The notes under the pieces are model-generated. The model was not told the origin of the DNA and did not search any database. It saw only the letters and a list, made by a program, of their open reading frames with translations. From positions 186,001 to 250,000 of the forward strand of contig NZ_JOEH01000021.1 in the NCBI RefSeq assembly GCF_000719095.1: 64,000 nt of DNA. Reading direction: 5' to 3'. Positions 1 through 63,176 of this stretch are shown piece after piece. This stretch comes from Streptacidiphilus jeojiense. Lineage in GTDB: Bacteria; Actinomycetota; Actinomycetes; Streptomycetales; Streptomycetaceae. Made by a program: the position numbers and the translations under genes. Each line of letters opens with the position of its first letter. The stretch's first letter is position 1.

Positions 1-1676
1 TCGACGAGGCATCGCAACTCGCTGATCCGGGAGCCGATTTCGTCGATCTGACGATCACCGTGCTGGGCCTGTCGGGCCAGCGGCGGGAGGCGGCCGAGGC
101 CACCCGGTGGCTGGACGCCGACGACCGGCAGCTGCTGTCGCTGTGGTGGATGGAGGTGGCCGGCCGGCTCACCCGCAGCGAACTGGCCGCCGCGATGAAG
201 CTGCCGCTGCCGCAGGCCGCGGTCCGGGTGCAGCGGATGAAGGCGCAGCTGGACGTGGCACGGGCGATCGTCCGCGCGCTCAGGGCGGTGCCGCGGTGTC
301 CGGAGACGGACCGGGTGCTGCGGGGCTGGGACGGACGGCCCACCGGCCTGTGGCGCAAGCGGCTGGCCAGGCATGTGCGCACCTGCGAGATGTGCGGCGG
401 GGTGCCGGTCGATCTGGTTCCGGCGGAGCGGCTGCTGGCCGATGTGGCGCTGGTGTCCGTCCCGCCGGTGCTGCTGCTGGGGCTGGCCGCCTCGGGACTG
501 GGAGCGGGGGCGGGAGCGGGAGGCGGCGCTGCGGGCGGCGCCGGGGCCCACACGGTGGCCGCCGCGGGCCGGGGTGCGGTCAGCACGGCGAGGCGGGCCG
601 CCTGGAAGACGGGCGGTGTCTCGGTCGGCAAGGGCGCGGTGCTCTCCTCGGTGGCGCTGGTCACCGCCACCGCGGCGACCGCCGCCTACGCCTTCGGGCT
701 GACCGGGCCGGCCCACGCCGGCGCCGCCGCGCCGGTGGCGACGGCGGCGCGCACGGTCGCCGCGGCGCCCTCCGCCACCCGGCCCGCGCCGACCCCCACG
801 CCCTCGCCCAGCGCCAAGCCCAGCCCCTCGCCGTCGCACAAGCCTGCGGCGCCGAAGCCGGCGGCGGTCGACAACACCGCGCTGCCGGTGCGGGCGGCCT
901 TCTACTACCCCTGGTACCCGGAGAACTTCAGCGGCGCGGGCAGCCAGTACACGCCCTCGGCGGGCAAGTACTCGGTGGACGTCCCGGCCACCGTCGACCG
1001 CCAGATCGAGGACATGCAGTACGGCGGTCTGCAGGCCGGCATCTCCTCCTGGTGGGGTGCGGGCAAGCGCGAGGACAAGCGGTTGCCGCTGCTGCTGTCC
1101 GAGGGCGCGAAGCTCGGCTTCTCCTGGACGGTGTACTACGAGCAGGAGGCGTACGGCGACCCCTCGGTGACGGCGATCCGGAGCGACCTGCAGTACCTGC
1201 GCAAGTACTCGGCCCAGAAGGCCTGGCTGCACATCGACGGCAAGCCGGTGATCTTCGTCTACGCCTCGGGCACCGACGGCTGCGGCATGGCCACCCGCTG
1301 GGCGCAGGCCAACCAGGGCGAGGGCTACTACGTGGTGCTGAAGGTCTTCGGCGGCTACCTCGGCTGCGCCGACCAGCCGCAGGGCTGGCACCAGTACGCC
1401 GACGTGCTGGACGTGCAGAAGGGCTACTCGGCGATCCTGTCGCCCGGGTTCTGGAAGAACGACGCCAAGACCCCGGCGGTCCCGCGCGACCTCGCCCGCT
1501 TCCGCAACGACGCCACCACCGTCGCCACCTCGGGCGCCCCGTTCCAGCTGGTGGTGACCTACAACGAATGGGGCGAGGGCACGGCGGTCGAGTCCGCCAC
1601 GGCCTGGTCCAGTGCCAGCGGCCACGGGGCGTACATGGACATCCTGCACCAGGTCTTCGCCGCGCATCCGCGCTGA
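1..1676 (+). CDS. ECF-type sigma factor tethered to a GH99-like extracellular domain (5' truncated)
   Basis: The window opens inside this gene; the frame is open from base 3. What remains is sigma-70 region 4 (helix-turn-helix at nt ~130-240, with LLSLWWMEVAGRLTRSELA), an H-x3-C-x2-C motif (nt 372-395) like that of zinc-binding anti-sigma folds, a hydrophobic membrane segment (nt ~636-701), a Pro/Ser/Thr-rich linker (nt ~780-870) and from nt ~889 a domain of about 260 residues. That domain has YYPWY near its start and NEWGEGT at nt 1563-1583, the arrangement of GH99-like alpha-mannan-active enzymes. The N-terminal region 2 lies outside the window. The gene is paralogous to the one at 58923-60683 through the sigma and zinc parts but not the outer domain. 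Inference: the cytoplasmic sigma part is held at the membrane and controlled by glycan sensing outside. Whether the outer domain is catalytic or only binds is open. Confidence 0.85.
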   Translation, partial: DEASQLADPGADFVDLTITVLGLSGQRREAAEATRWLDADDRQLLSLWWMEVAGRLTRSELAAAMKLPLPQAAVRVQRMKAQLDVARAIVRALRAVPRCPETDRVLRGWDGRPTGLWRKRLARHVRTCEMCGGVPVDLVPAERLLADVALVSVPPVLLLGLAASGLGAGAGAGGGAAGGAGAHTVAAAGRGAVSTARRAAWKTGGVSVGKGAVLSSVALVTATAATAAYAFGLTGPAHAGAAAPVATAARTVAAAPSATRPAPTPTPSPSAKPSPSPSHKPAAPKPAAVDNTALPVRAAFYYPWYPENFSGAGSQYTPSAGKYSVDVPATVDRQIEDMQYGGLQAGISSWWGAGKREDKRLPLLLSEGAKLGFSWTVYYEQEAYGDPSVTAIRSDLQYLRKYSAQKAWLHIDGKPVIFVYASGTDGCGMATRWAQANQGEGYYVVLKVFGGYLGCADQPQGWHQYADVLDVQKGYSAILSPGFWKNDAKTPAVPRDLARFRNDATTVATSGAPFQLVVTYNEWGEGTAVESATAWSSASGHGAYMDILHQVFAAHPR

Positions 1677-1696: not shown

Positions 1697-2548
1697 CTAC
1701 TCGGCGATGCCGCGGGTGAGCAGCACCACGGTCACGAAGGTGCGGTAGAGGCGGATCGGGTCGTGGTCGTCCAGGTGGACCACGGTGGGGTCGGCCCGGT
1801 CCTGGGCGACCCCGGTGATCCAGGTCGCCATTTCGGCCAGGTCCGGGTTGCGGAAGCGGACGGTGAGGGTGGCGGGCAGGTCGATCCGGGGGAGCGAGGC
1901 GGTGGACAGCCCGGACACGGCACGGTGGGCGGCGGTGCGGATCGCCTCGCGGGCGTCGGCCGGGTGCAGGCTGTCGGCGGCGAAGCGGGAGACCGAGGTC
2001 TTCACCACGGCGGCGTGGACGTCGGGGCAGAACGGCTCGATCTCGGCGGCGGTGGTGTCGTCACCGGTGATCAGCACCACCGGGACCCGGTGCCCCAGCG
2101 CGACCAGCGCGTTGATCGCGCTCTCGCCGGCGACCGACCCGTTCAGCCGCACCTCGCTGATGGCCGCCGGGTTGTAGGTGTGCGAGAGGGCCGAGGAGGT
2201 GGCCATCGAGCCGTGGTAGGAGACGAAGAAGACGGCGTCGAAGGAGGAATCCAGGCCCTGCATCATGTAGAGCGGCTTGTGCCGGCCCGACAGGTAGCGG
2301 GCGCGTCCTGACAGGGTGTCGGGGCGGAGGTTGGCCATCCGTCCGTGCGAGTCGTTGACCAGGAAGCCGACCGCGGAGCCGTCCCCCGCGCCTTCGGCGG
2401 CGCCCTCGATCGCGCCCTCGATCGCGGCGTTGACCTCGGCCTGGAGCAGGTCGCGGTAGTAGGGGTAGTCGACCCCCGAGGGCCGGCACTGCTCCCAGTC
2501 GACGACCCCGGCGGTGCCCTCCATGTCGGTGGAGACGAAGATCTTCAC
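1697..2548 (-). CDS. M55 family D-aminopeptidase (DppA-like)
   Basis: A 283-residue protein of the M55 zinc peptidase family, which forms decamers and releases N-terminal D-amino acids. The N-terminus KIFVSTDMEGTAGVV carries the D-x-E metal ligands of the family; VNDSHGRMANL and VSYHGSMA supply the further histidines expected in the active site. The GTG start (2548) overlaps the stop of the upstream asparaginase gene (GTGA), so the two are translationally coupled. No signal peptide is seen, so it probably acts in the cytoplasm. Inference: with its partner it may recycle damaged or D-/iso-residue peptides. The assignment to the family is firm, the substrate is not. Confidence 0.9.
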   Translation of the reverse strand: MKIFVSTDMEGTAGVVDWEQCRPSGVDYPYYRDLLQAEVNAAIEGAIEGAAEGAGDGSAVGFLVNDSHGRMANLRPDTLSGRARYLSGRHKPLYMMQGLDSSFDAVFFVSYHGSMATSSALSHTYNPAAISEVRLNGSVAGESAINALVALGHRVPVVLITGDDTTAAEIEPFCPDVHAAVVKTSVSRFAADSLHPADAREAIRTAAHRAVSGLSTASLPRIDLPATLTVRFRNPDLAEMATWITGVAQDRADPTVVHLDDHDPIRLYRTFVTVVLLTRGIAE

Positions 2549-3492
2549 AGCACCGCCCTCGGGTGCATCCGCAGCTCGGGGGAGTGCTCGGTCATCACGG
2601 CGTAGGTGCTGCCCTGCTGGCCGGCGGCGCCGCCGTGGCGGCCGTCCGGGGTGAGCGCCAGCGCGCGCAGCTCGGCGCGGAAGTCGTCGGGCAGCGTCGC
2701 GGCCTCGGCCAGTGCCGAACGGCAGGCCTCGGCCGGATCCGCTCCGGCGGCGAGCAGGTCGACGATGGTGCGGGCGGTGCCGCCGCGCATGCTCAGCTCG
2801 CCGCGGCCGGTGCAGGCCGCGCCGCCGGCGCGCAGGTCGCACCAGTTCCCGGCGCCGGGGACGGCCGAATCGCCCACCCGGCCGGGGTACTTGAAGGGGT
2901 AGCCGGAGGTGGAGACGCCCACGCACAGCTCGCCGGAGGAGTCCAGCGCGATGATGTTGATGGTGCCCCAGGGGCCCTCGTGCGGTGCCAGCCTGCGGAC
3001 CAGGTCCAGCGCCGTGCGCCGGTAGAGCGCGTCTCCGTCGAGCGCTGCGGTGTTCTCGCCCTCGACCGACTCGCCGGAGGCCCGCAGCTGCTCCCGCCAC
3101 AGCGTCTTGGCCTCGTTGGTGAGCAGTTCGGCCCGGCGGAAGCCGTTCTCCTTGGCGAACAGCGCGGCGCCCTCGCCGACCAGCATGCAGTGCTGGGGCA
3201 GTCCCTCCAGCACCGCCCGGGCCACCGAGATCGGGTTGGGGTAGCCGCGCAGCGCCCCCACCGAGCCGAACCTGCGGTTGGAGCCCAGCATCACCGAGGC
3301 GTCGAGTTCGACCTCGCCCTGGGCGTTCGGCAGGCCGCCGGTGCCCACGTAGTGGTCGGCGAGGTTGTCCTCGCAGCAGCGCATCGCGGCCTCGACCGCG
3401 TCCAGGGCGGAACCGCCCCGCGCGAGCACCTCCATGCCGGTCGGCAGACCGGCCTCGCTGCGTTCGCTTCCGATGATGACGGCCTCTGGCAC
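2545..3492 (-). CDS. N4-(beta-N-acetylglucosaminyl)-L-asparaginase / isoaspartyl peptidase family (Ntn hydrolase)
   Basis: A 315-residue threonine-type Ntn hydrolase. The sequence GTINIIALD places the autoprocessing nucleophile at about Thr177, after an alpha chain of 176 residues, and the downstream GDSAVPGAGNWCD and ACTGRGE segments fit the beta-chain substrate pocket of glycosylasparaginases. The GTG start at 3492 is chosen because GGAG lies five bases upstream; an upstream in-frame start at 3567 has no such site and would add 25 residues without family likeness. The gene reads into the M55 aminopeptidase with a 4-base overlap. Known members cleave GlcNAc-Asn or beta-aspartyl bonds; which applies here cannot be told by eye. 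Confidence 0.9.
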   Translation of the reverse strand: MPEAVIIGSERSEAGLPTGMEVLARGGSALDAVEAAMRCCEDNLADHYVGTGGLPNAQGEVELDASVMLGSNRRFGSVGALRGYPNPISVARAVLEGLPQHCMLVGEGAALFAKENGFRRAELLTNEAKTLWREQLRASGESVEGENTAALDGDALYRRTALDLVRRLAPHEGPWGTINIIALDSSGELCVGVSTSGYPFKYPGRVGDSAVPGAGNWCDLRAGGAACTGRGELSMRGGTARTIVDLLAAGADPAEACRSALAEAATLPDDFRAELRALALTPDGRHGGAAGQQGSTYAVMTEHSPELRMHPRAVL

Positions 3493-3601
3493 GGGGGCTC
3501 CAGGATGACGGTGCGGTGGTGACGTTCCGGTTGTGTACCGGGCCACTCTCGCACGGCCGATGATCACCGCGGACCGCGGGGCGTCCCCGCGCCGGCGGCG
3601 G

Positions 3602-5806
3602 TCAGGCCGTCGGCGGGGCGGGGGCGGCCTCCGGGACGGGGTGGAAGGTCTCCTGGAGCCGGTTGCCCTCGATGTCCGGGTCGGGGACGTACTTGGCGAA
3701 CCACTGGGGGTGGTACCAGAGCTTGGAGCGGATGATGGCCATCACCGCGGGCACCAGGGTGAGCCGGACCACGAAGGCGTCCAGCAGCACGCCGGTGGCG
3801 AAGCTGAAGCCGATGGCCTTGATGGTGGGGTCGTTGGTGAACATGAAGGCCACGAAGATGGAGAACATGATCAGGGCGGCGGCGGTGACCACCCGGGCCG
3901 CCAGGCCGGTGCCGCTCTCGACCGCGCCGCGGGCGTCGTCGCTCTTGCTGAACTCCTCCTTGATCCGGGAGACCACGAAGACCTCGTAGTCGCTGGAGAG
4001 GCCGAAGATGATCGCGAGCATCAGGATCGGCAGGAAGCTGATGGTCTCGCTCGGGGTGATCCCGAAGATGTGCCGGCCCCAGCCCCACTGGAAGATCGCC
4101 ACCTGGGCCCCGAGCGCCGCCAGCACCGAGAGCAGGAAGCCGATGATGGACTTGATCGGGACCAGGATGGTGCGGAACGCGAAGGTCAGCAGGATGAAGG
4201 CGAGTCCGACCACGACCACCAGGAACACCGGCAGCGCGCTGTTGAGCTTGCTGGACACGTCGATGTTGGAGGCGGTGGTGCCGCCGACCAGGACGGTCGC
4301 CCCGGTGCTGCCCTCGACGGCGGCGCGCTGGTTGCGGATTCCGTGCACCAGGTCGGCGGTGGCCGGGTCGTTGGGGCCGGTCTTGGGGATCAGCCGGAAG
4401 ACCACGGTCTGCGGGGTCTGCACCGCCACGCTGGCGGTGTCCACGCCGGGGACCTTCTCCAGCCTGTCGAGGATCTGCTGGGTGTCGGCGCTGCCGGAGA
4501 TCCCGTCGGCGACCACCAGCAGCGGGCCGTTGAAGCCGGCCCCGAAACTGGCCGTGGTCAGGTCGTAGGCCTTGCGCGAGGTGTCCGAGGTGGGCTTGGA
4601 GGAACCGCTGGGCAGGCCCAGCTGCATGCTCCAGTACGGGATCGCCAGCACCACCAGGAAGGCCACCCCGGCGATCAGCATCGGCACCCGGAACCGGACC
4701 ACGAAGCGGGCCCAGCGGGCGCCGAAGGTGCGCTGCGGGGCGGTGGCGCCGATGGTGGCGACCTGCTCGTGGTGGCCGCGGCGCAGCGGGGTGTCGATGA
4801 ACTTGGTGACCTTGTGCCCGGCGAAGCCGAGCATGGCGGGCAGCAGGGTGAGCGCGATCAGCATAGCCATCAGCACCGCGGCCGCGGCGCTGAGGCCCAT
4901 CACGGTGAGGAACGGGATTCCGACCACGGACAGTCCGCACAGCGCGATGATCACGGTGAGCGCGGCGAAGACCACCGAGCTGCCGGCGGTGCCGGCGGCC
5001 AGTGCCGCGGAGTCCTCCACGCTGAGCCCGTTGAGCAGGTTGTTGCGGTGCCTGGACAGGATGAACAGGCCGTAGTCGATGCCGCAGGACAGGCCGAGCA
5101 TGATGGCGACGGTGGTGGAGGCGGAGGCGATGTCGACCACCGCGGCGACCGCGGTGACGCCCATCAGGGTGATCACCACGCCGATGATCGCGGTGAGGAT
5201 CGGCAGCCCGGCGGTGACCAGCGCGCCGAAGGTGATCACCAGGATGACGAAGGCGATGACCAGCCCGATCAGCTCGGGGGCCTCGGAGGGGACCAGCCGC
5301 CAGCCGGGGTAGACGCTGCCGGAGTACTCCACCTGGACGCCGGCCTGCTGGGCCGGCTTCACCGCGGTCTTCACGTCGTCCAGGGAGGCGTCCTTCACCT
5401 GCGCCGCGGCGACCGAGTACTGCACCTGGCCCAGGGCCACCCGACCGTCCGGGGAGACCGCGTGCGCCGTGTAGGGGTCGGAGACCGAGACCACCTGCGG
5501 GACCTTCTTCAGGTTCGCGAGCGCGGCCTCGACGCCGCTCTTGTAGGGCTCGGCGCTGATGTTCGAGCCCACCGGCGCCGCGAAGACGACCTGGGTCTGC
5601 GCACCGCTCAGTGCCGGCACCTTCTTCACCAGCAGGTCCGAGACGTGCTGGGACTCGGTGCCGGGGATGGTGAAGTTGTCGTTGGTCTTCCCGCCGCTGA
5701 GCTGGCCCAGCAGGATCGCGCCGACGGCGGCGAGCAGCCACAGCGCCAGCACCAGCCGGCGGCGCCGGAACGAGAACCGGGACAGCCGGAACAGGTACGT
5801 CGACAT
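3602..5806 (-). CDS. MMPL/RND family membrane transporter
   Basis: A 734-residue integral membrane protein with two repeats, each one helix, a large extracellular loop and a five-helix bundle. The start MSTYLFRLSRFSFRRRRLV gives a positively charged end before the first helix; the loop contains the NISAEPYKSGVEAAL and YSGSVYPGW segments common to actinomycete MMPL proteins, and the second half repeats the pattern around SSDYEVFVVSRIKEEF. Family members export lipids, siderophores or antibiotics using the proton gradient. It stands alone on this strand, ends 110 bases from the asparaginase start, and no regulator gene adjoins it. A palindrome overlapping its probable promoter (5976-5993) suggests control by a TetR-like repressor coded elsewhere. 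Confidence 0.92.
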   Translation of the reverse strand: MSTYLFRLSRFSFRRRRLVLALWLLAAVGAILLGQLSGGKTNDNFTIPGTESQHVSDLLVKKVPALSGAQTQVVFAAPVGSNISAEPYKSGVEAALANLKKVPQVVSVSDPYTAHAVSPDGRVALGQVQYSVAAAQVKDASLDDVKTAVKPAQQAGVQVEYSGSVYPGWRLVPSEAPELIGLVIAFVILVITFGALVTAGLPILTAIIGVVITLMGVTAVAAVVDIASASTTVAIMLGLSCGIDYGLFILSRHRNNLLNGLSVEDSAALAAGTAGSSVVFAALTVIIALCGLSVVGIPFLTVMGLSAAAAVLMAMLIALTLLPAMLGFAGHKVTKFIDTPLRRGHHEQVATIGATAPQRTFGARWARFVVRFRVPMLIAGVAFLVVLAIPYWSMQLGLPSGSSKPTSDTSRKAYDLTTASFGAGFNGPLLVVADGISGSADTQQILDRLEKVPGVDTASVAVQTPQTVVFRLIPKTGPNDPATADLVHGIRNQRAAVEGSTGATVLVGGTTASNIDVSSKLNSALPVFLVVVVGLAFILLTFAFRTILVPIKSIIGFLLSVLAALGAQVAIFQWGWGRHIFGITPSETISFLPILMLAIIFGLSSDYEVFVVSRIKEEFSKSDDARGAVESGTGLAARVVTAAALIMFSIFVAFMFTNDPTIKAIGFSFATGVLLDAFVVRLTLVPAVMAIIRSKLWYHPQWFAKYVPDPDIEGNRLQETFHPVPEAAPAPPTA

Positions 5807-56767: not shown

Positions 56768-58816
56768 CTAGCGCCGACGACCCGTGCGCCGGCGGTGTCC
56801 GCCGCCGGCCCCTGCGGCGGACCTGCGGCGGTTGCGCAGCAGCAGGGTGGCGCCGGTCGCCAGCAGGGCGGCGGTCGCACCGGCCAGGCCGAGGGTGGGC
56901 ACGGAGCTGCCGGTCTGCGCCAGGTCGCCGGACGCGCCGGCGACCTGGGCGGGGGAGGCGGACGCGGCGGCTGCTGCCGCAGTGCTGCCCGTCGACGTCG
57001 CTCCGGTCGCCGCCGCGGTGGCGCCGGTGCTCGCGCTCGGGTGCGCGTCGGCCGTCGCCTGCTCGGCCGTCCCGGTGGTCCAGCCGTGCCCGGCCGGGAC
57101 GGCCTTGTCGGTCAGGGTCAGTGAGCCGCTGCCGGTCTTGTTCAGCGTCCCGCCGACGATCCGGCCGCTGAAGACGGTGGACGCGGAGGTGTCCACGGTC
57201 AGGGTGTTGTCGCCGAGCAGGATGGTGCTGCCCTGGACGCCGGACAGGCTGTGGACGGTCTGGTCGCCCGCCTTGCGCAGGTCCAGCACCGCTCCCGGGC
57301 GGGTCAGCGCGACGCCGCTGCCGGTGGCCAGGCTGCCGCCGGTGACGGCGAGGGTTCCCGCGGAGACGGTGGTGCTGCCGGTGTAACTGGTCGCGCCGGT
57401 CAGCGTGGTGGTGCCGGAGCCGGCCTGGAGCAGGGAGCCGGAGCCGCTGATCCGGGACAGCGAGACCGCCTTGGCGGTGTTGCGGACCACCAGGGTGCCC
57501 CGGTCGTCGATGCTGTCCGCGGCCGTCCCGGTGAGCAGGCTGGAGTCGCCGCCCGCGGCCCCGGTGCCCAGGGTCAGTGTGGCCCCGGCGCCGATGGTGG
57601 TGGTGCCGTGGTAGTTCATCGGCGTCGCGAAGGTCACCGCGTTGCCCGGGTGGGCGATCAGGCTGATGTCGCTGTACGCGGGGGTGCTGAGCGAGTTGTG
57701 GTAGACGCCGCCGGATATCGGGGTGTCCAGGGTGACCGGCCCGTCGTAGTCGAAGGCCAGCGTGCCGTTGTTGTGGATGTTGATGTAGGAGTTGGCGGGG
57801 GTGGCCGGGAGGAAGAACCGGCTGGTGGTCCCGTCGCCCCACTGCACGTGCGCGCCTTCGATGTTGACGCCGCGGGTGTTGGCGTTGCCCACCGAGGTAC
57901 TGAGGTTGAGCGACGGGTTGCTCAACGAGGGGTTGTTCGGCACCCCCTGGTCCGCGTAGCTGTACACCCCGCTGACGACGACCAGGCCGCCGCGCGCGGT
58001 GTGGAAGTTGATGTCGTTGCCGTAGTGGTCCTCGTAGAAGTCCTGACGCAGCCTCAGGGTGTAGTCGTACGGGGTGCCGACGATGGCCGAGCCCTCGTTG
58101 ACGATGGCCTTGGCGTTGGGCAGCGCCAGCGGGTACCACGGCTTGGCCAGCGCCATTCCGGTGCCGTTGTAGATGACGCCGCTGAACGGGTGGGTGCCGG
58201 CCAGGTCCAGGGTCCCCCAGGTGAAGCGCGGTTGGATGACCAGCCCCGAGCCGCTGATGGTGCCGAGGTTGTAGTTCCGGTTCACGGTCTGCAGCACCAG
58301 GGTGCCGTCGACCCGGATGTTGTCCTCGTTCAGCGCGTAGCCCGGGGTGCCGTAGGGGTAGTGGCCGATGATGCCGGTCGAGCCGCCGGAGCTGTACTGC
58401 AGGGTGGCGCCGCGGCTGACGATCACGGCCGGCTGGTCGGGGTCGGTGACCGTGGTCACCGGATGGGCCGACCTGGTCGTGGTCACCGTCTGGTGGCGGC
58501 GCGACGCGGGCAGGGTGAAGTCGCTGTCCTTGGTGAGCACCAGGGTGCCGGAGCCGCCGGGGGCGTTCACGGTGAGCGTTCCGGTGCCGCTGATGACGCC
58601 GTTGTAGGTGGTGGTCCCGGTGGGCAGGTTCACCACCGCGTCGCCGGTGAGGGTGACGTCCTGCCCGGCCCGGATCGCGGCGGTGATGTCGGTGGTGGCC
58701 GCCGAGGCCGTCAACTGCGAGGCCAGGAGCGGCGCGCCCACGGCCGCGAGTGCCACCGACCCGGCGACCACGACCCGTCCGCGGCGAATCCGGTGTGCGC
58801 CAGTCTGCTTGCCCAT
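56768..58816 (-). CDS. Sortase-anchored surface protein with autotransporter-type beta-strand repeats
   Basis: A 682-residue exported protein. Signal cleavage is likely near residue 40. The body is a long beta-helix with repeats of the type seen in autotransporter-associated (PATR) proteins: GTTTYNGVISGTGTLTV, GTTTLTGATSYTGSTTVSAG, GSTILLGDNTLTV, GGTLNKTGSGSLTL. An Ala/Thr/Ser stalk leads to LAQTG, a hydrophobic helix and an Arg-rich tail, a class E sortase signal. Passenger domains with such repeats are best known from Gram-negative autotransporters; here the outer-membrane barrel is replaced by a cell-wall anchor. The ATG follows GGGAG. Function probably adhesion; no enzyme motif seen. Confidence 0.82.
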   Translation of the reverse strand: MGKQTGAHRIRRGRVVVAGSVALAAVGAPLLASQLTASAATTDITAAIRAGQDVTLTGDAVVNLPTGTTTYNGVISGTGTLTVNAPGGSGTLVLTKDSDFTLPASRRHQTVTTTRSAHPVTTVTDPDQPAVIVSRGATLQYSSGGSTGIIGHYPYGTPGYALNEDNIRVDGTLVLQTVNRNYNLGTISGSGLVIQPRFTWGTLDLAGTHPFSGVIYNGTGMALAKPWYPLALPNAKAIVNEGSAIVGTPYDYTLRLRQDFYEDHYGNDINFHTARGGLVVVSGVYSYADQGVPNNPSLSNPSLNLSTSVGNANTRGVNIEGAHVQWGDGTTSRFFLPATPANSYINIHNNGTLAFDYDGPVTLDTPISGGVYHNSLSTPAYSDISLIAHPGNAVTFATPMNYHGTTTIGAGATLTLGTGAAGGDSSLLTGTAADSIDDRGTLVVRNTAKAVSLSRISGSGSLLQAGSGTTTLTGATSYTGSTTVSAGTLAVTGGSLATGSGVALTRPGAVLDLRKAGDQTVHSLSGVQGSTILLGDNTLTVDTSASTVFSGRIVGGTLNKTGSGSLTLTDKAVPAGHGWTTGTAEQATADAHPSASTGATAAATGATSTGSTAAAAAASASPAQVAGASGDLAQTGSSVPTLGLAGATAALLATGATLLLRNRRRSAAGAGGGHRRRTGRRR

Positions 58817-58922: not shown

Positions 58923-60683
58923 TCAGGACGTCAGCCGGGACTGCTGGGCGACCGAGAAGGGGTCGGCGGGGGAGGAGCGGGTCAGGTACTGCGGTACCGG
59001 GGCGGTGTCGTCGCCGGTGTCCCGGACCAGGCCGTAGCGGACCAGGCCGGCCGCCGGGTCGGGAGCCTGGTCGATGTCGTCGCTGACGGCCTGCCAGGTG
59101 CTGGGGGCGACGATCAGCGAGTAGCGCAGGCCGGCCTGGTCCAGGTGCACGGTGACCGTGCCGTCCAGGTAGAAGTACTCGTTCTGCCACATCTGCTGGG
59201 CCCCCGCAACCAGCGTGTCGTAGCCCTGGGCGCGGTCGCCCATCCAGGTGCCGGCGACGGTGCTGCCCGGCTTGGGGTCGTCCATCCGCCGCCCGCCGCC
59301 GGAGGCGACATGGAACAGCCTGCCGCCGAGCCCGGTCCAGGTCGGCGGGAAGATCTGACCCACGGTCGGGAGCTGCCAGCGCACCAGGAGGTAGCCGCGG
59401 CCGGTGATGGTGAGGTTGTCGCCGCGGTGGTCCAGCACGTACATCTCGCCGGTGGCGCCGGGGTGTTGGGCCCCGAACGTGCCGGACAGGGCCAGCGGCG
59501 CGGTCTGCGGCCGCACCGGCAGCGGGCCGGGCTTCACGGTGGCGGGCGGGGCGGACTCCGCCTGGTCCACGGTCTGGCCGTAGACCGGGGCCGTGGGGGA
59601 GGCGGACGGCGTCGGAACGGCGCTGAGTGAGGCGGTGGGCGTGGCGGTGCTGACGGCCGTCGGGGAGGTGCTGGATGCGGTGGTCGCTGCGAGCTGATGC
59701 GCCGGCTTGTGCGGGGGCCGGTCCAGGACGGCGTACCCGGCTGCGGCGCCGCCGCCCAGCGCCAGCGCGCCCGCGGCGGCGACGGCGACGGGTTTGGCCA
59801 TCAGGTACTGCACCAGGTGCGCGGCGCGTCCGCCCAGGCCGGCGGCGTGGGTCGCGGTGGCATGGCCGGTGACGGCATGGGCGGCTCCCCCGTGCAGGAA
59901 GGTGAATGTGCCGACGCCCAGCCCCGGTGGTGGCGGCACCAGCGCGATCCCGGCGAGCAGTCCCTCCGGCGGCAGCAGGTCGCGCCAGTGCAGGGAGCAG
60001 TTCCGGCAGTCGGTGGCGTGCCGCACCACCCGCCTGCGCCAGAGCGGGGCCGGTGTCCCGTCCCAACGGTCGGTCAGCGCGACCAGGTCCGGGCAGGGCG
60101 GGGTGCCGCGCAGTGCCCGGACCACGACCCTGGCCGCCTCCAGCCGTTCCTTGACCCGCTGCACCCGCACCGCCGTGTGCTGCGGTGTGAGGTGCAGCGC
60201 CTCGGCCAGCTCGGACCGGGTGAGCCGGCCGGCCGCCTCCAGCCACCACAGCGACAGCACGTCGCGCTCGGACGGCTCGATCCAGCGGGTGGCCTCAGCC
60301 AACTCCTGGCGCTGGTCCGACAGTTCCAGGCGGATGATGGTGACGTCGACGAAGTCCGCGTCCGGGTCGGGCAGGCCGAGCATCTCGTCCAGGAAACCGG
60401 GCGCCGGCCGGGCCTGCTGCCGGCGCCACCGTTCGCGGACCTTCTGCATGGCGATCGAGACCAGCCAGGACCGGAAGCGCTCCGCGTCGCGCAGCCGGTC
60501 CAGGCCGTTGACCACGCTCAGCATGGTGTCCTGGACCACGTCGTCCACGTCCGCGTGGCCGCTCAGCGCCCGGCCCACGACGTTGTAGACCAGCGGCAGG
60601 CAGTCCGCGACCAGGTCGTCCAGAGCCCGTGGGTCCCCGGCGGTCGCGGCGGCCACGAGCTCGGTGTCCGGATTGTGCAGCAC
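58923..60683 (-). CDS. ECF sigma factor with zinc motif, membrane anchor and extracellular domain
   Basis: About 586 residues: sigma region 2 (~21-90; VDDVVQDTMLSVVNGLDRL), region 4 (~130-185; VLSLWWLEAAGRLTRSELA), H222-x3-C226-x2-C229, a membrane helix (~298-320), a Ser/Thr/Pro stalk (~331-370) and an outer domain (~375-586) of beta-rich, carbohydrate-binding-like appearance that I do not recognise. Sigma and zinc parts closely match the gene at the left edge (DADFVDVTII / GADFVDLTIT; ATRWIEPSERDVLSLWW / ATRWLDADDRQLLSLWW), but the outer domains differ. GTG 60683 has GAGAGGA 11 bases upstream; GTG/ATG choices up to 60755 are possible. Inference: a one-protein signal device with sensor, anchor, anti-sigma-like switch and sigma factor. 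Confidence 0.85.
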   Translation of the reverse strand: MLHNPDTELVAAATAGDPRALDDLVADCLPLVYNVVGRALSGHADVDDVVQDTMLSVVNGLDRLRDAERFRSWLVSIAMQKVRERWRRQQARPAPGFLDEMLGLPDPDADFVDVTIIRLELSDQRQELAEATRWIEPSERDVLSLWWLEAAGRLTRSELAEALHLTPQHTAVRVQRVKERLEAARVVVRALRGTPPCPDLVALTDRWDGTPAPLWRRRVVRHATDCRNCSLHWRDLLPPEGLLAGIALVPPPPGLGVGTFTFLHGGAAHAVTGHATATHAAGLGGRAAHLVQYLMAKPVAVAAAGALALGGGAAAGYAVLDRPPHKPAHQLAATTASSTSPTAVSTATPTASLSAVPTPSASPTAPVYGQTVDQAESAPPATVKPGPLPVRPQTAPLALSGTFGAQHPGATGEMYVLDHRGDNLTITGRGYLLVRWQLPTVGQIFPPTWTGLGGRLFHVASGGGRRMDDPKPGSTVAGTWMGDRAQGYDTLVAGAQQMWQNEYFYLDGTVTVHLDQAGLRYSLIVAPSTWQAVSDDIDQAPDPAAGLVRYGLVRDTGDDTAPVPQYLTRSSPADPFSVAQQSRLTS

Positions 60684-60791: not shown

Positions 60792-63176
60792 TCAGCCGGC
60801 GGTGATCTCCGGATGCAGGCGCCGGGTGTGGTCGACGGTGCGGACCGGTCCGGTGAGGGTCAGTCGGACGGCGTGGCGGGTCTCGGTGCTGGAGGCCGCC
60901 AGCCGCAGCTCCAGGTCGCCGGGCTCGACGATCCGCCGGCCCTCGCGTCCGGTGAAGGACGCCAGGTCGGCCGGCAGGGTGATCCGCAGCCGGGACCGCT
61001 CGCCGGGGTCCAGGGTGATCCGCCGGTAGCCGACCAGCCGTTGCACCGGCTGGACCACCGAGGCCACCGGGTCGTGCAGGTACAGCTGGACCACCTCGGT
61101 GCCGCTGCGCCGGCCGGTGTTGCGCACGGTCAGGGCGATCCGGAACTCCCCGGCGGTGTCGGCGGTGTCCTGGAGCAGTTGCAGGTCGGACCAGTCGAAG
61201 TCGGTGTAGGACAGTCCGTGGCCGAAGCCGTAGGCCGGGGTCGGGTCGGTGCTGGAGACATCGCTGGCCTGGGCGAGCCTGGCCGCCAGGTATGTGGACG
61301 GCTGGACGCCGGGACGGCCCGGGACGCTGACCGGCAGCCGGCCGGAGGGGTTGATCCGGCCGCCGATCACCCCGGCCACCGCCCGGGCGCCGGCCTCGCC
61401 GGGGAAGAAGGACTGGACGATGCCGGCTGCCTCGCCCACCGCGCGGCCCAGCGCATAGGGGCGTCCGGCCAGCAGGACGACCACTACCGGGGTGCCGGCG
61501 TCCAGCAATGCGTCGAGCAACTGCTGTTGCAGTCCCGGGAGTTCGAGTGACTCGGCATCGCAGCCCTCGCCGCTGGTGCCGCGTCCGAACAGCCCGGCCC
61601 GGTCGCCCAGGGCGAGTAGCACCACGTCCGCGCCCCGGGCCAGCTCCACCGCCTCGGCGATGCCCGAGGCGTCGCCGCCGTCGACGGTGGTACCGGGTGC
61701 GGTGACCACCTCGCTGTCCGGGAACTCGGCGCTGACCTGGTCGAGCAGCGTGGGCAGGTCGATGCCGAGCGGTACCTGCGGGTGCTTGCCGCCGACGTGC
61801 ACCGGGAAGGCGTAGCAGCCGAGCAGGGCGCGCGGAGTGTCGGCGTTGGGGCCGATCACCGCGATCCGGCCCGGACGGTCCAGCGGCAGGGTGCCGTCGT
61901 TGCGCAGCAGCACCACGGCCTGTTCGGCGACCTCCTCGGCCAGCGCCCGGTTGGCCGCGGGGTCCAGGTCGATGCGGCCGCGCAGGGCGCCCGGCGGCAG
62001 TGTGTCGTAGGTCGCCGGGTCGGTGCCGGTGCCGGCCAGGGCGGGCGGGACCGGGTTCCAGTCGGGGTCCAGCAGCCCCAGTTCGGCCTTCTGCACCAGG
62101 ACCCGCCGCAGCGCGCGGTCCACCAGTCGCTCGGGTACCGCGCCCGAGCCGACGGCGGCCAGCAGCGGTTCGCCGAAGGCCTTGACGGTGGGCAGTTCCA
62201 CGTCGACCCCGCCGGCCAGCGCGAGGCCCGCCGCGTCGCCCAGGTCCGCGGCCACCCCGTGCAGGGTCCGCAGGAAGGCGATGCCGAAGTAGTCGGCGAC
62301 CACGGTCCCGGTGAAGCCCCAGACGTCCCGGAGCAGGGTGGTCAGCAGCTCCTGGTCGGCGGCGGAGGGGATCCCGTCGGTGTCGGTGTAGGCGGACATC
62401 ACCGAGCGCGGACGGCCCTCGCGCAGGGCCATCTCGAACGGGGGCAGGATGACGTCGGCGCGCTCGCGCGGGCCCATCGGGACCGGGGCGAGGTTGCGGC
62501 CGGCGACGGAGGCGGAGTAGCCGGCGAAGTGCTTGAGGGTGGCGACGATCCCGGCGGACTCCAGCCCCAGCACATAGCCGGTGGCGATGGTGCCGACCAG
62601 GTAGGGGTCCTCGCCGATGGTCTCCTCCACCCGCCCCCAGCGGGCGTCGCGGACCACGTCGAGGACCGGGGCCAGGCCCTGGTGCACGCCCACGGCGCGC
62701 ATGTCCCGGCCGATGGCGGCGGCCATCGCCCGGACCAGCTCCGGGTTGAAGGTGGCGCCCCAGGACAGCGGCACCGGGTAGGCGGTGGCCCCCCAGGCCG
62801 CGAAGCCGGCCAGGCACTCCTCGTGGGCCAGCGCCGGTATCCCGAACCGGTTGGCGGCGGCGATGCGGCGCTGACTGCGCATCAGCGAGACGGCGCCGAG
62901 GGCGGGGTCGATCGGGGTGGTGCCGAACGGGCGGGTCAACTGGCCTAGGCCGTAAGGGAGCAGGGCGTCGAGATCGACCGGCTCCTCCATGTCGTGCTGG
63001 TAGGGGGCGACCTCGCCGCCGTCGGCGGAGGCGCCGACCCAGACGCCCACCAGTTGGGCGAGTTTCTCGCGCAGGGTCATCGCGGCGATCAGGGCGTCGG
63101 CGCGTTCGCCGGCCGGCAGCGAGGTGTCCTGCCAGTCCGGGACGGCGGTACGGGTGGTGTTCACGCGCTCTCTCAT
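60792..63176 (-). CDS. GH3 beta-glycosidase (beta-glucosidase/beta-xylosidase type)
   Basis: A 794-residue GH3 enzyme: N-terminal barrel with KHFAGYSAS at ~215 and the nucleophile Asp295 in TVVADYFGI, the alpha/beta sandwich with the region around GDRAGLFGRGTSGEGCDAE, and a C-terminal fibronectin III-like domain. No signal peptide, so it hydrolyses imported oligosaccharides in the cytoplasm. The ATG overlaps the upstream permease stop (ATGA), making it the last gene of a sugar uptake operon that extends past the window. Confidence 0.93.
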   Translation of the reverse strand: MRERVNTTRTAVPDWQDTSLPAGERADALIAAMTLREKLAQLVGVWVGASADGGEVAPYQHDMEEPVDLDALLPYGLGQLTRPFGTTPIDPALGAVSLMRSQRRIAAANRFGIPALAHEECLAGFAAWGATAYPVPLSWGATFNPELVRAMAAAIGRDMRAVGVHQGLAPVLDVVRDARWGRVEETIGEDPYLVGTIATGYVLGLESAGIVATLKHFAGYSASVAGRNLAPVPMGPRERADVILPPFEMALREGRPRSVMSAYTDTDGIPSAADQELLTTLLRDVWGFTGTVVADYFGIAFLRTLHGVAADLGDAAGLALAGGVDVELPTVKAFGEPLLAAVGSGAVPERLVDRALRRVLVQKAELGLLDPDWNPVPPALAGTGTDPATYDTLPPGALRGRIDLDPAANRALAEEVAEQAVVLLRNDGTLPLDRPGRIAVIGPNADTPRALLGCYAFPVHVGGKHPQVPLGIDLPTLLDQVSAEFPDSEVVTAPGTTVDGGDASGIAEAVELARGADVVLLALGDRAGLFGRGTSGEGCDAESLELPGLQQQLLDALLDAGTPVVVVLLAGRPYALGRAVGEAAGIVQSFFPGEAGARAVAGVIGGRINPSGRLPVSVPGRPGVQPSTYLAARLAQASDVSSTDPTPAYGFGHGLSYTDFDWSDLQLLQDTADTAGEFRIALTVRNTGRRSGTEVVQLYLHDPVASVVQPVQRLVGYRRITLDPGERSRLRITLPADLASFTGREGRRIVEPGDLELRLAASSTETRHAVRLTLTGPVRTVDHTRRLHPEITAG

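What the first reader, a model, noticed from the sequence alone, without database searches (positions are those of the whole stretch)
1..1676. Sigma factor fused through the membrane to a GH99-like domain
One reading frame joins sigma region 4, an H-x3-C-x2-C motif, a membrane helix, a Pro/Ser/Thr stalk and a complete GH99-like domain with NEWGEGT (1563-1583). ECF sigma factors with C-terminal membrane extensions are known in Actinobacteria surveys, but a glycosidase-like outer domain retaining its acidic active-site motif suggests direct glycan sensing, perhaps of alpha-mannan. Release of the sigma part would need proteolysis or a conformational switch.
Basis: partly seen in the sequence, partly recalled or inferred. 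Interest (0 to 1): 0.75.

Follow-up and report, generated by a model that had tools for sequence, protein, structure and literature searches.

The report
Glycan-sensing sigma factor with GH99 domain
A single bacterial protein carries a gene-switching sigma factor inside the cell and, across the membrane, a sugar-cleaving-type domain outside, and sequence evidence suggests it switches on its own gene and glycan-handling genes when that outer domain meets its sugar; the general idea is known, this version and its likely target genes are worked out here.

The parts
1..1676 (+). 3' part of the fused sigma gene (residues 102-658 from base 3, stop at 1674-1676); the gene starts 301 bases before the window
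102..284 (+). sigma region 4 (helix-turn-helix, residues about 135-195); sigma region 2 lies upstream of the window
   Evidence: helices in model; sub-threshold HTH hit 138-181 and Sigma70_r2 24-90; TIGR02937 19-184
372..395 (+). zinc-binding anti-sigma motif HxxxCxxC (HVRTCEMC, residues 225-232)
   Evidence: 79 of 80 homologue rows
432..503 (+). first hydrophobic stretch with Pro-Pro (residues 245-268), uneven among homologues, probably not membrane-spanning
   Evidence: 65 of 75 rows reach KD19 1.6
636..695 (+). membrane helix (residues about 313-332), preceded by the near-invariant Lys311 and a positively charged stretch
   Evidence: 75 of 75 rows reach KD19 1.4, 71 reach 1.6; Lys in 74 of 75; net charge before it median +5
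699..878 (+). Pro/Ser/Thr/Ala-rich stalk (residues about 334-393)
885..1673 (+). GH99-like (beta/alpha)8 domain (residues 396-658)
   Evidence: PF16317; AlphaFold pLDDT 90.8, pTM 0.91; Foldseek and VIA-align to GH99
1281..1283 (+). Cys528, invariant, possible disulfide with Cys556
   Evidence: 75 of 75 rows
1365..1367 (+). Cys556, invariant, possible disulfide with Cys528
   Evidence: 75 of 75 rows
1563..1583 (+). NEWGEGT; Glu623 (1566-1568) and Glu626 (1575-1577) align with the GH99 catalytic pair of EWHE
58923..60683 (-). paralogous fused sigma gene of the same family (sigma + zinc motif + membrane helix + stalk + C-terminal domain without a Pfam match)
60792..63176 (-). GH3 glycosidase gene directly upstream of and collinear with the paralogue
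   Evidence: same arrangement in L155
56768..58816 (-). secreted PATR-repeat protein gene directly downstream of the paralogue
   Evidence: same arrangement by sequence in L155 and L157

Best explanation
It is a one-polypeptide, membrane-anchored glycan receptor. In the resting state sigma regions 2 and 4 are held at the inner membrane face by the fused zinc anti-sigma segment, with a GH99-type barrel outside on a stalk. Binding or cleavage of a glycan by the barrel leads to proteolysis in the stalk and membrane helix, which frees the sigma part. The freed sigma factor reads promoters of the form TTTCTGTTAT-N18-CCCTCC, first its own (positive feedback) and, where present, those of adjacent secreted glycoside hydrolases. 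Shown by sequence: the layout, its conservation, the predicted fold, the kept acidic pair, the single clade of the sigma half, the promoter footprint and its recurrence at partner genes. Inferred: that this sigma factor reads that promoter, that a glycan is the signal, that release is proteolytic. Unknown: which glycan.
For: Fold and catalytic pair. Sigma half of the GH99 type (15 of 42 rows) forms one clade, support 100/99, in 100% of 200 bootstrap trees. Nearest free-standing relatives of the domain have a signal peptide or lipoprotein start by eye (P0122-P0124), placing the domain outside; two invariant cysteines and a positive stretch before the helix agree. A glycosidase-family gene is an immediate neighbour in 6 of 9 GH99-type loci: four by Pfam matches above cut-off, two (own, L024) by a GH99 match below cut-off. 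Footprint upstream of 8 aligned orthologues; in an actinomycete MAG the same promoter form also precedes the neighbouring GH99/71-like gene. Sister types give the same logic: sigma-GH128 and its divergent thaumatin-family gene share a promoter form in own, L153 and L154 and again in G062, whose sigma part is nearest to the own GH128 type; the pattern adds a thaumatin-family gene on another contig in two genomes. Pattern over 15 genomes: 35 sites against 3 for the reversed pattern; 24 of 35 lie at fused sigma genes (16) or thaumatin-family (6), PATR-like (1) or alginate-lyase-like (1) genes. A site-2 protease gene (Peptidase_M50) lies near sigma-CAP in 3 of 5 loci.
Against: In the own genome the promoter model finds only the gene's own promoter (next match E 1.17), so the GH99 type has no predicted distant target there, and the divergent GH99/71-like neighbour is frame-broken as assembled and lacks the motif. 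Three of 9 GH99-type loci show no obvious glycosidase neighbour (not every neighbour was scanned). The general pattern does not match the loci of the unassigned and pectate-lyase-like sigma types (L011, L151, L152, L155, L157, L159), nor, in exact form, the GH99-type loci L020, L021 and L024, which carry variants. The CAP-type sister has no clear glycan link. Nine of 15 sites of the first family-wide pattern, with a shorter spacer, belong to what looks like one orthologous LacI-type gene, where the element could be an ordinary -10. The shorter pattern had one site but also one control site. The general pattern was drawn partly from the same genes it finds again; 11 of its 35 sites are at unrelated or unexamined genes. 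No protease, cleavage site or ligand was tested.
Confidence: 0.6

Rival explanations
1. The outer barrel is chiefly a surface-tethered working enzyme, and the sigma half reports membrane or envelope state rather than glycan; the two functions share one anchor.
For: Catalytic motif kept in 78 of 80 rows; close free-standing relatives look like secreted or lipoprotein enzymes, one with ricin-type lectin repeats.
Against: Outer domain types vary on the same sigma chassis and several match neighbouring or co-promoted genes, which fits sensing better than coincidence.
Confidence: 0.15
2. Signal release is conformational: ligand binding shifts the zinc segment off the sigma part with no cleavage.
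For: No known domain was found between helix and barrel, only a low-complexity stalk.
Against: A stalk of about 60 residues transmits shape changes poorly (inference); a site-2 protease gene lies near a sister type in 3 of 5 loci; the review expects proteolysis for ECF48/52/53.
Confidence: 0.2
3. The ligand is a polymer of the bacterium's own envelope, so the system senses wall state or development, as SCO4117 (ECF52) affects differentiation.
For: SCO4117 deletion delays sporulation and alters antibiotic production (abstract and passages); for the CAP type no glycan-degrading neighbour was noticed.
Against: Partners of the other types are degradative genes: alpha-1,3-glucanase family, GH5, GH42-like, GH3, and pectinesterase plus GH28.
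Confidence: 0.15
4. Both hydrophobic stretches span the membrane, so the barrel is cytoplasmic and senses imported sugars.
For: 65 of 75 rows have a first stretch of KD19 at least 1.6.
Against: The first stretch holds Pro-Pro and falls below the threshold in 10 of 75; the 30 residues before the second helix are positively charged; the barrel has two invariant cysteines and relatives that look exported.
Confidence: 0.05

Closest known systems
ECF52 / ECF53 sigma factors of Actinobacteria (SCO4117 is ECF52)
   Same: ECF sigma domain, zinc-finger segment, membrane helix or helices, and extracytoplasmic extension in one protein; proline-rich stalk and carbohydrate-binding domain in ECF52; some members with predicted glycosidase domains (passages of PMC8999054, PMC10766802 and PMC5826349)
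   Different: The outer domain of SCO4117 is a carbohydrate-binding module, here a GH99-type barrel. The promoter proposed for SCO4117 (CSGYN-17bps-SRHA) does not look like the signature found here. Whether the two founding surveys (Huang 2015, Pinto 2019) list a GH99 form could not be read.
SigI/RsgI of Clostridium thermocellum
   Same: Outer glycan-binding or glycosidase domain on a membrane anti-sigma protein controls polysaccharide genes; several paralogues with different sensors (passages of PMC12203970)
   Different: There sigma and anti-sigma are two proteins and an autocleaving periplasmic domain starts the cascade; here sigma and anti-sigma are fused and no such domain was found.
IutY (ECF243) of Pseudomonas putida
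   Same: Sigma factor fused to its membrane anti-sigma part, released by Prc and RseP
   Different: Its signal is an iron carrier in a Gram-negative envelope; no glycosidase domain is mentioned.
GH99 endo-alpha-mannosidases and endomannanases (MANEA, BtGH99, BxGH99)
   Different: 17-20% identity in the listed GH99 rows, H[I/L]EPY motif absent and first loop apparently shorter; activity unknown.

Membership tests
ECF sigma factor | ECF-type sigma-70 domain (regions 2 and 4) | tested here: met
   Sigma70_r2 24-90; TIGR02937 19-184, 53.9 bits over a cut-off of 42.9
ECF52/ECF53-type fusion | Zinc-finger anti-sigma segment, membrane helix and extracytoplasmic extension in one chain | tested here: met
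   HxxxCxxC in 79 of 80 rows; helix in 75 of 75 at KD19 1.4; GH99 fold; no Pfam zinc-finger match was returned
ECF53 (named group) | Placement by the published ECF group models | not testable with these tools
   No ECF group models or reference sequences on hand; survey papers not held
GH99 | EW[H/G]E catalytic motif | tested here: met
   NEWGEGT aligned with NEWHEGT of BtGH99; motif as given in PMC11025385
GH99 | GH99 (beta/alpha)8 fold | tested here: met
GH99 | H[I/L]EPY motif | tested here: not met
   Aligned stretch reads YYEQEAY
GH99 | Long loop (about 50 residues) between first strand and first helix | tested here: inconclusive
   About 40 residues between the aligned blocks in BtGH99 against about 10 here, but the first block is not a significant alignment; loop described in PMC12394665
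GH99 | Endo-alpha-mannosidase activity | not testable with these tools
   Needs enzyme assay
GH71 | DYGE motif | tested here: not met
   EWGE here; motif from PMC13421300
RsgI-like anti-sigma sensor | Separate sigma factor and autocleaving periplasmic domain | tested here: not met
   Sigma is fused; only a low-complexity stalk lies between helix and barrel

The most novel reading that the evidence does not exclude
One sigma chassis in Actinobacteria has taken on different catalytic-fold outer domains (GH99-like, GH128, pectate-lyase-like, others), each giving a one-piece receptor that reads a polysaccharide with the fold of an enzyme that cuts it and that drives its own gene plus matching secreted genes through type-specific versions of TTTSYGTKRY-N17-19-YCTCC, so that glycan specificity can be predicted from the sensor and the regulon from the promoter.
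Probability: 0.45. Interest if true: 0.75.

Novelty: new variant of a known kind. Interest (0 to 1): 0.6.

Why it matters
For membrane-anchored ECF52/53 sigma factors the signal is not established in the passages read, and targets are reported there for one protein, SCO4117. The promoter signature and the match between sensor type and partner genes turn that question into simple reporter tests, and suggest a ready-made, swappable glycan sensor in soil bacteria that degrade fungal and plant polymers.

Tried and rejected
Rejected: a frameshift between sigma and barrel, and with it a two-protein reading (frame open, layout kept in about 80 rows). Rejected: sigma start at base 60. Rejected as targets: the nine spacer-15 sites at one LacI-type orthologue, named by eye, and 11 of 35 sites of the general pattern that lie at genes with no evident link (9) or were not examined (2: G042:C67, G042:C85). 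Considered and left open: GH71 instead of GH99 (lower Z, other motif); a second motif copy about 100 nt upstream in the own genome and S. jiangxiensis. A Phycisphaerae locus that first looked like an independent fusion (L091) holds two neighbouring genes. Led nowhere: paper searches returned no paper; one search added nothing. The whole-chain model is poor outside the folded parts.

Full report
What is there. The window is G000:C21:186001-250000, so it cuts the gene 301 bases after its start. The full ORF gives 658 residues: Sigma70_r2 at 24-90 and Glyco_hydro_99 at 413-523, above its cut-off. Between them lie region 4, HxxxCxxC, two hydrophobic stretches and a stalk. The frame is open throughout. 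Contig lengths show that G002, G042 and G021 are the Streptacidiphilus carbonis, S. jiangxiensis and Actinacidiphila soli records; G002 and G042 are marked as the same genus as the window's genome.

Conservation. A search of 5.8 billion proteins gave 3475 hits; of the 120 listed, 79 carry both Sigma70_r2 and Glyco_hydro_99, 7 the GH99 domain only, 6 the sigma domain only, 25 sigma plus CAP and 3 sigma plus GH128 (Glyco_hydro_cc). Of 80 rows (P0001-P0081 without P0077), 79 have HxxxCxxC and 78 NEW[G/V]EGT; P0023 reads NEYGEG, P0074 has no such motif and P0050 no zinc motif.

Topology. In 75 aligned rows the stretch after Lys311 reaches hydropathy 1.4 in 75 and 1.6 in 71; the earlier one reaches 1.6 in 65. 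The 30 residues up to that Lys carry a median net charge of +5, those after the helix +1. Cys528 and Cys556 are invariant in the 75. The nearest sigma-free relatives P0122-P0124 begin with what look by eye like a signal peptide (P0122) or lipoprotein signals (P0123, P0124) and share the same kind of stalk (no signal predictor was run). One membrane pass with the barrel outside is therefore most likely.

Origin. In a 59-row tree of the domain (one row, P0148, dropped because its start motif was not found), 25 sigma-fused and 5 free-standing rows form one supported group (100/99); two changes of label are needed and one origin is not ruled out. In a 42-row tree of the sigma plus zinc part, the GH99 type (15 rows) is one clade (100/99, 100% of 200 bootstrap trees); the other types are not clearly single (B4_P0235 dropped because its start was not found).

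Family in the genome. The own genome has three such fusions at E below 1e-70: this one, one with GH128 (C27) and one inside the window at 58923-60683 with an unassigned C-terminal domain. Eight further genomes gave 18 matches.

Neighbours. GH99 type, nine loci: a glycosidase-family gene is an immediate neighbour in six. Above Pfam cut-off: S. carbonis, downstream CatAgl alpha-1,3-glucanase family, then a GH99/71-like gene; S. jiangxiensis, divergent GH42 with a lectin match below cut-off; Catenulispora rubra, downstream GH42, then CatAgl; Actinoplanes palleronii, downstream GH5. Below cut-off: the divergent gene of the own genome, frame-broken as assembled, and the upstream gene of MAG L024, 64% identical over 350 residues, both with weak Glyco_hydro_99 matches; GH99/71-like is my label for them. 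L024 ends inside its barrel, whose start is readable. None was obvious in G019, Actinacidiphila soli and S. hyaluromycini (not every neighbour was scanned). No background rate was measured. GH128 type: a divergent thaumatin-family gene in 3 of 4 loci, a ricin-lectin gene in the fourth. Pectate-lyase-like type: divergent pectinesterase plus GH28 protein. Unassigned types: GH3 upstream in own and L155, PATR-type protein downstream in own, L155 and L157, where the contig edge hides the upstream side; alginate-lyase family next to L152. CAP type: M50 site-2 protease in 3 of 5 loci and DUF5709-type protein in 4 of 5.

Promoters. Upstream regions of eight orthologues share TTTCTGTTAT (or a close variant) and CCCTCC about 18 bases apart; where CCCTCC lies 6-7 bases before the start codon I see no ribosome site, and in Catenulispora and L024 the start is further down with one (reading of the alignment). 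CTGTTAT-N15-19-CCCTCC occurs once in the 9.16 Mb own genome, at this gene; its reversed control also has one site. In 297 family genomes TTTSTGWTAT-N15-18-CCCTCC has 15 sites against 2 for its reversed control: six at sigma-GH99 genes and nine, with a shorter spacer, at one gene that looks LacI-type. In L024 the motif also precedes the GH99/71-like gene. A nine-sequence model finds only the own promoter in the own genome (E 8.1e-9; next 1.17).

Footprints for sister types differ in detail: GH128 TTTCCGTTGT-N16-CGTCTCC, CAP TTTCTGTGAC-N17-GGTCTCC; the unassigned type shares a conserved TTCTTGTTAT. The divergent thaumatin-family gene carries the GH128 version in own, L153 and L154. In 550,047 bases of loci, some of them duplicates, the general pattern has 21 sites, all at a fused sigma gene or at that thaumatin-family gene, and none in the reversed sequence. 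It does not match the sigma loci L011, L151, L152, L155, L157, L159 (unassigned and pectate-lyase-like types) or, exactly, L020, L021 and L024. Across 15 genomes (own, 13 of its genus and G021) TTTCYGTKRY-N17-19-YCTCC has 35 sites against 3 controls: 16 fused sigma genes; 6 thaumatin-family genes, two of them on another contig than the sigma gene; 1 PATR-like start (54% over 89 residues) and 1 alginate-lyase-like start (72% over 32 residues), both short reading frames as assembled; 11 other or unexamined. The pattern was drawn from some of these same genes, so the independent part is the thaumatin-family genes on other contigs, the PATR-like and alginate-lyase-like starts, and sigma genes in genomes not used to draw it (G058, G062, G066, G074).

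Reading. The simplest account is a self-activating, one-piece glycan receptor, as proposed in general form for ECF52/53 (passages of PMC8999054, PMC10766802 and PMC5826349) and working like RsgI (passages of PMC12203970). What this work adds is the GH99-type member in detail, the family of exchangeable sensors around it, and a promoter code that ties some sensors to partner genes. The ligand, the cleavage and the activity are not shown. Whether a GH99 form is already in print could not be settled: no title, abstract or passage seen names one, but most listed papers were not opened and the two key surveys are not held.

Noticed in passing
window 58923-60683 (-), with 60792-63176 and 56768-58816: A second fused sigma gene of the same family lies inside the window between a GH3 gene and a secreted PATR protein gene; what look like sugar ABC transporter genes lie further upstream in L011. 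Its C-terminal domain has no Pfam match although its family is large.
   Followed up: partly
L009:about 4035-5426 (-), just upstream of the window: The divergent GH99/71-like neighbour (TAT-type start by eye) is split by a frame change near L009:5140-5240 as assembled; it could be an assembly error or real decay.
   Followed up: partly
L009:2-2536: A GH92 (alpha-mannosidase family) gene and an enolase-like gene (named by eye) lie upstream of the sigma gene.
   Followed up: no
L147:5716-6831, L148:9983-11095, L150:10049-11143: A site-2 protease (Peptidase_M50 with CBS) and a DUF5709-type protein neighbour the CAP-type fused sigma gene, a possible dedicated releasing protease.
   Followed up: partly
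L091:5055-8462: In a Phycisphaerae MAG a GH99-like protein gene is followed by a gene for a sigma-like protein with a long C-terminal extension: the same two parts as neighbours, not fused.
   Followed up: partly
L009:5562 and L019:9823: A second copy of TCTGTTAT lies about 100 bases upstream of the main promoter in the own genome and in S. jiangxiensis, same orientation.
   Followed up: no
L098-L100, L102-L107: TTTSTGTTAT-N15-CCCTCC is conserved in front of one gene that looks LacI-type in one genus of the family.
   Followed up: partly
window 1697-3567 (-): A gene starting MKIFVSTDMEGTAG (D-aminopeptidase DppA-like, named from memory) and an asparaginase-like gene (likewise) follow the sigma gene on the other strand.
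   Followed up: no
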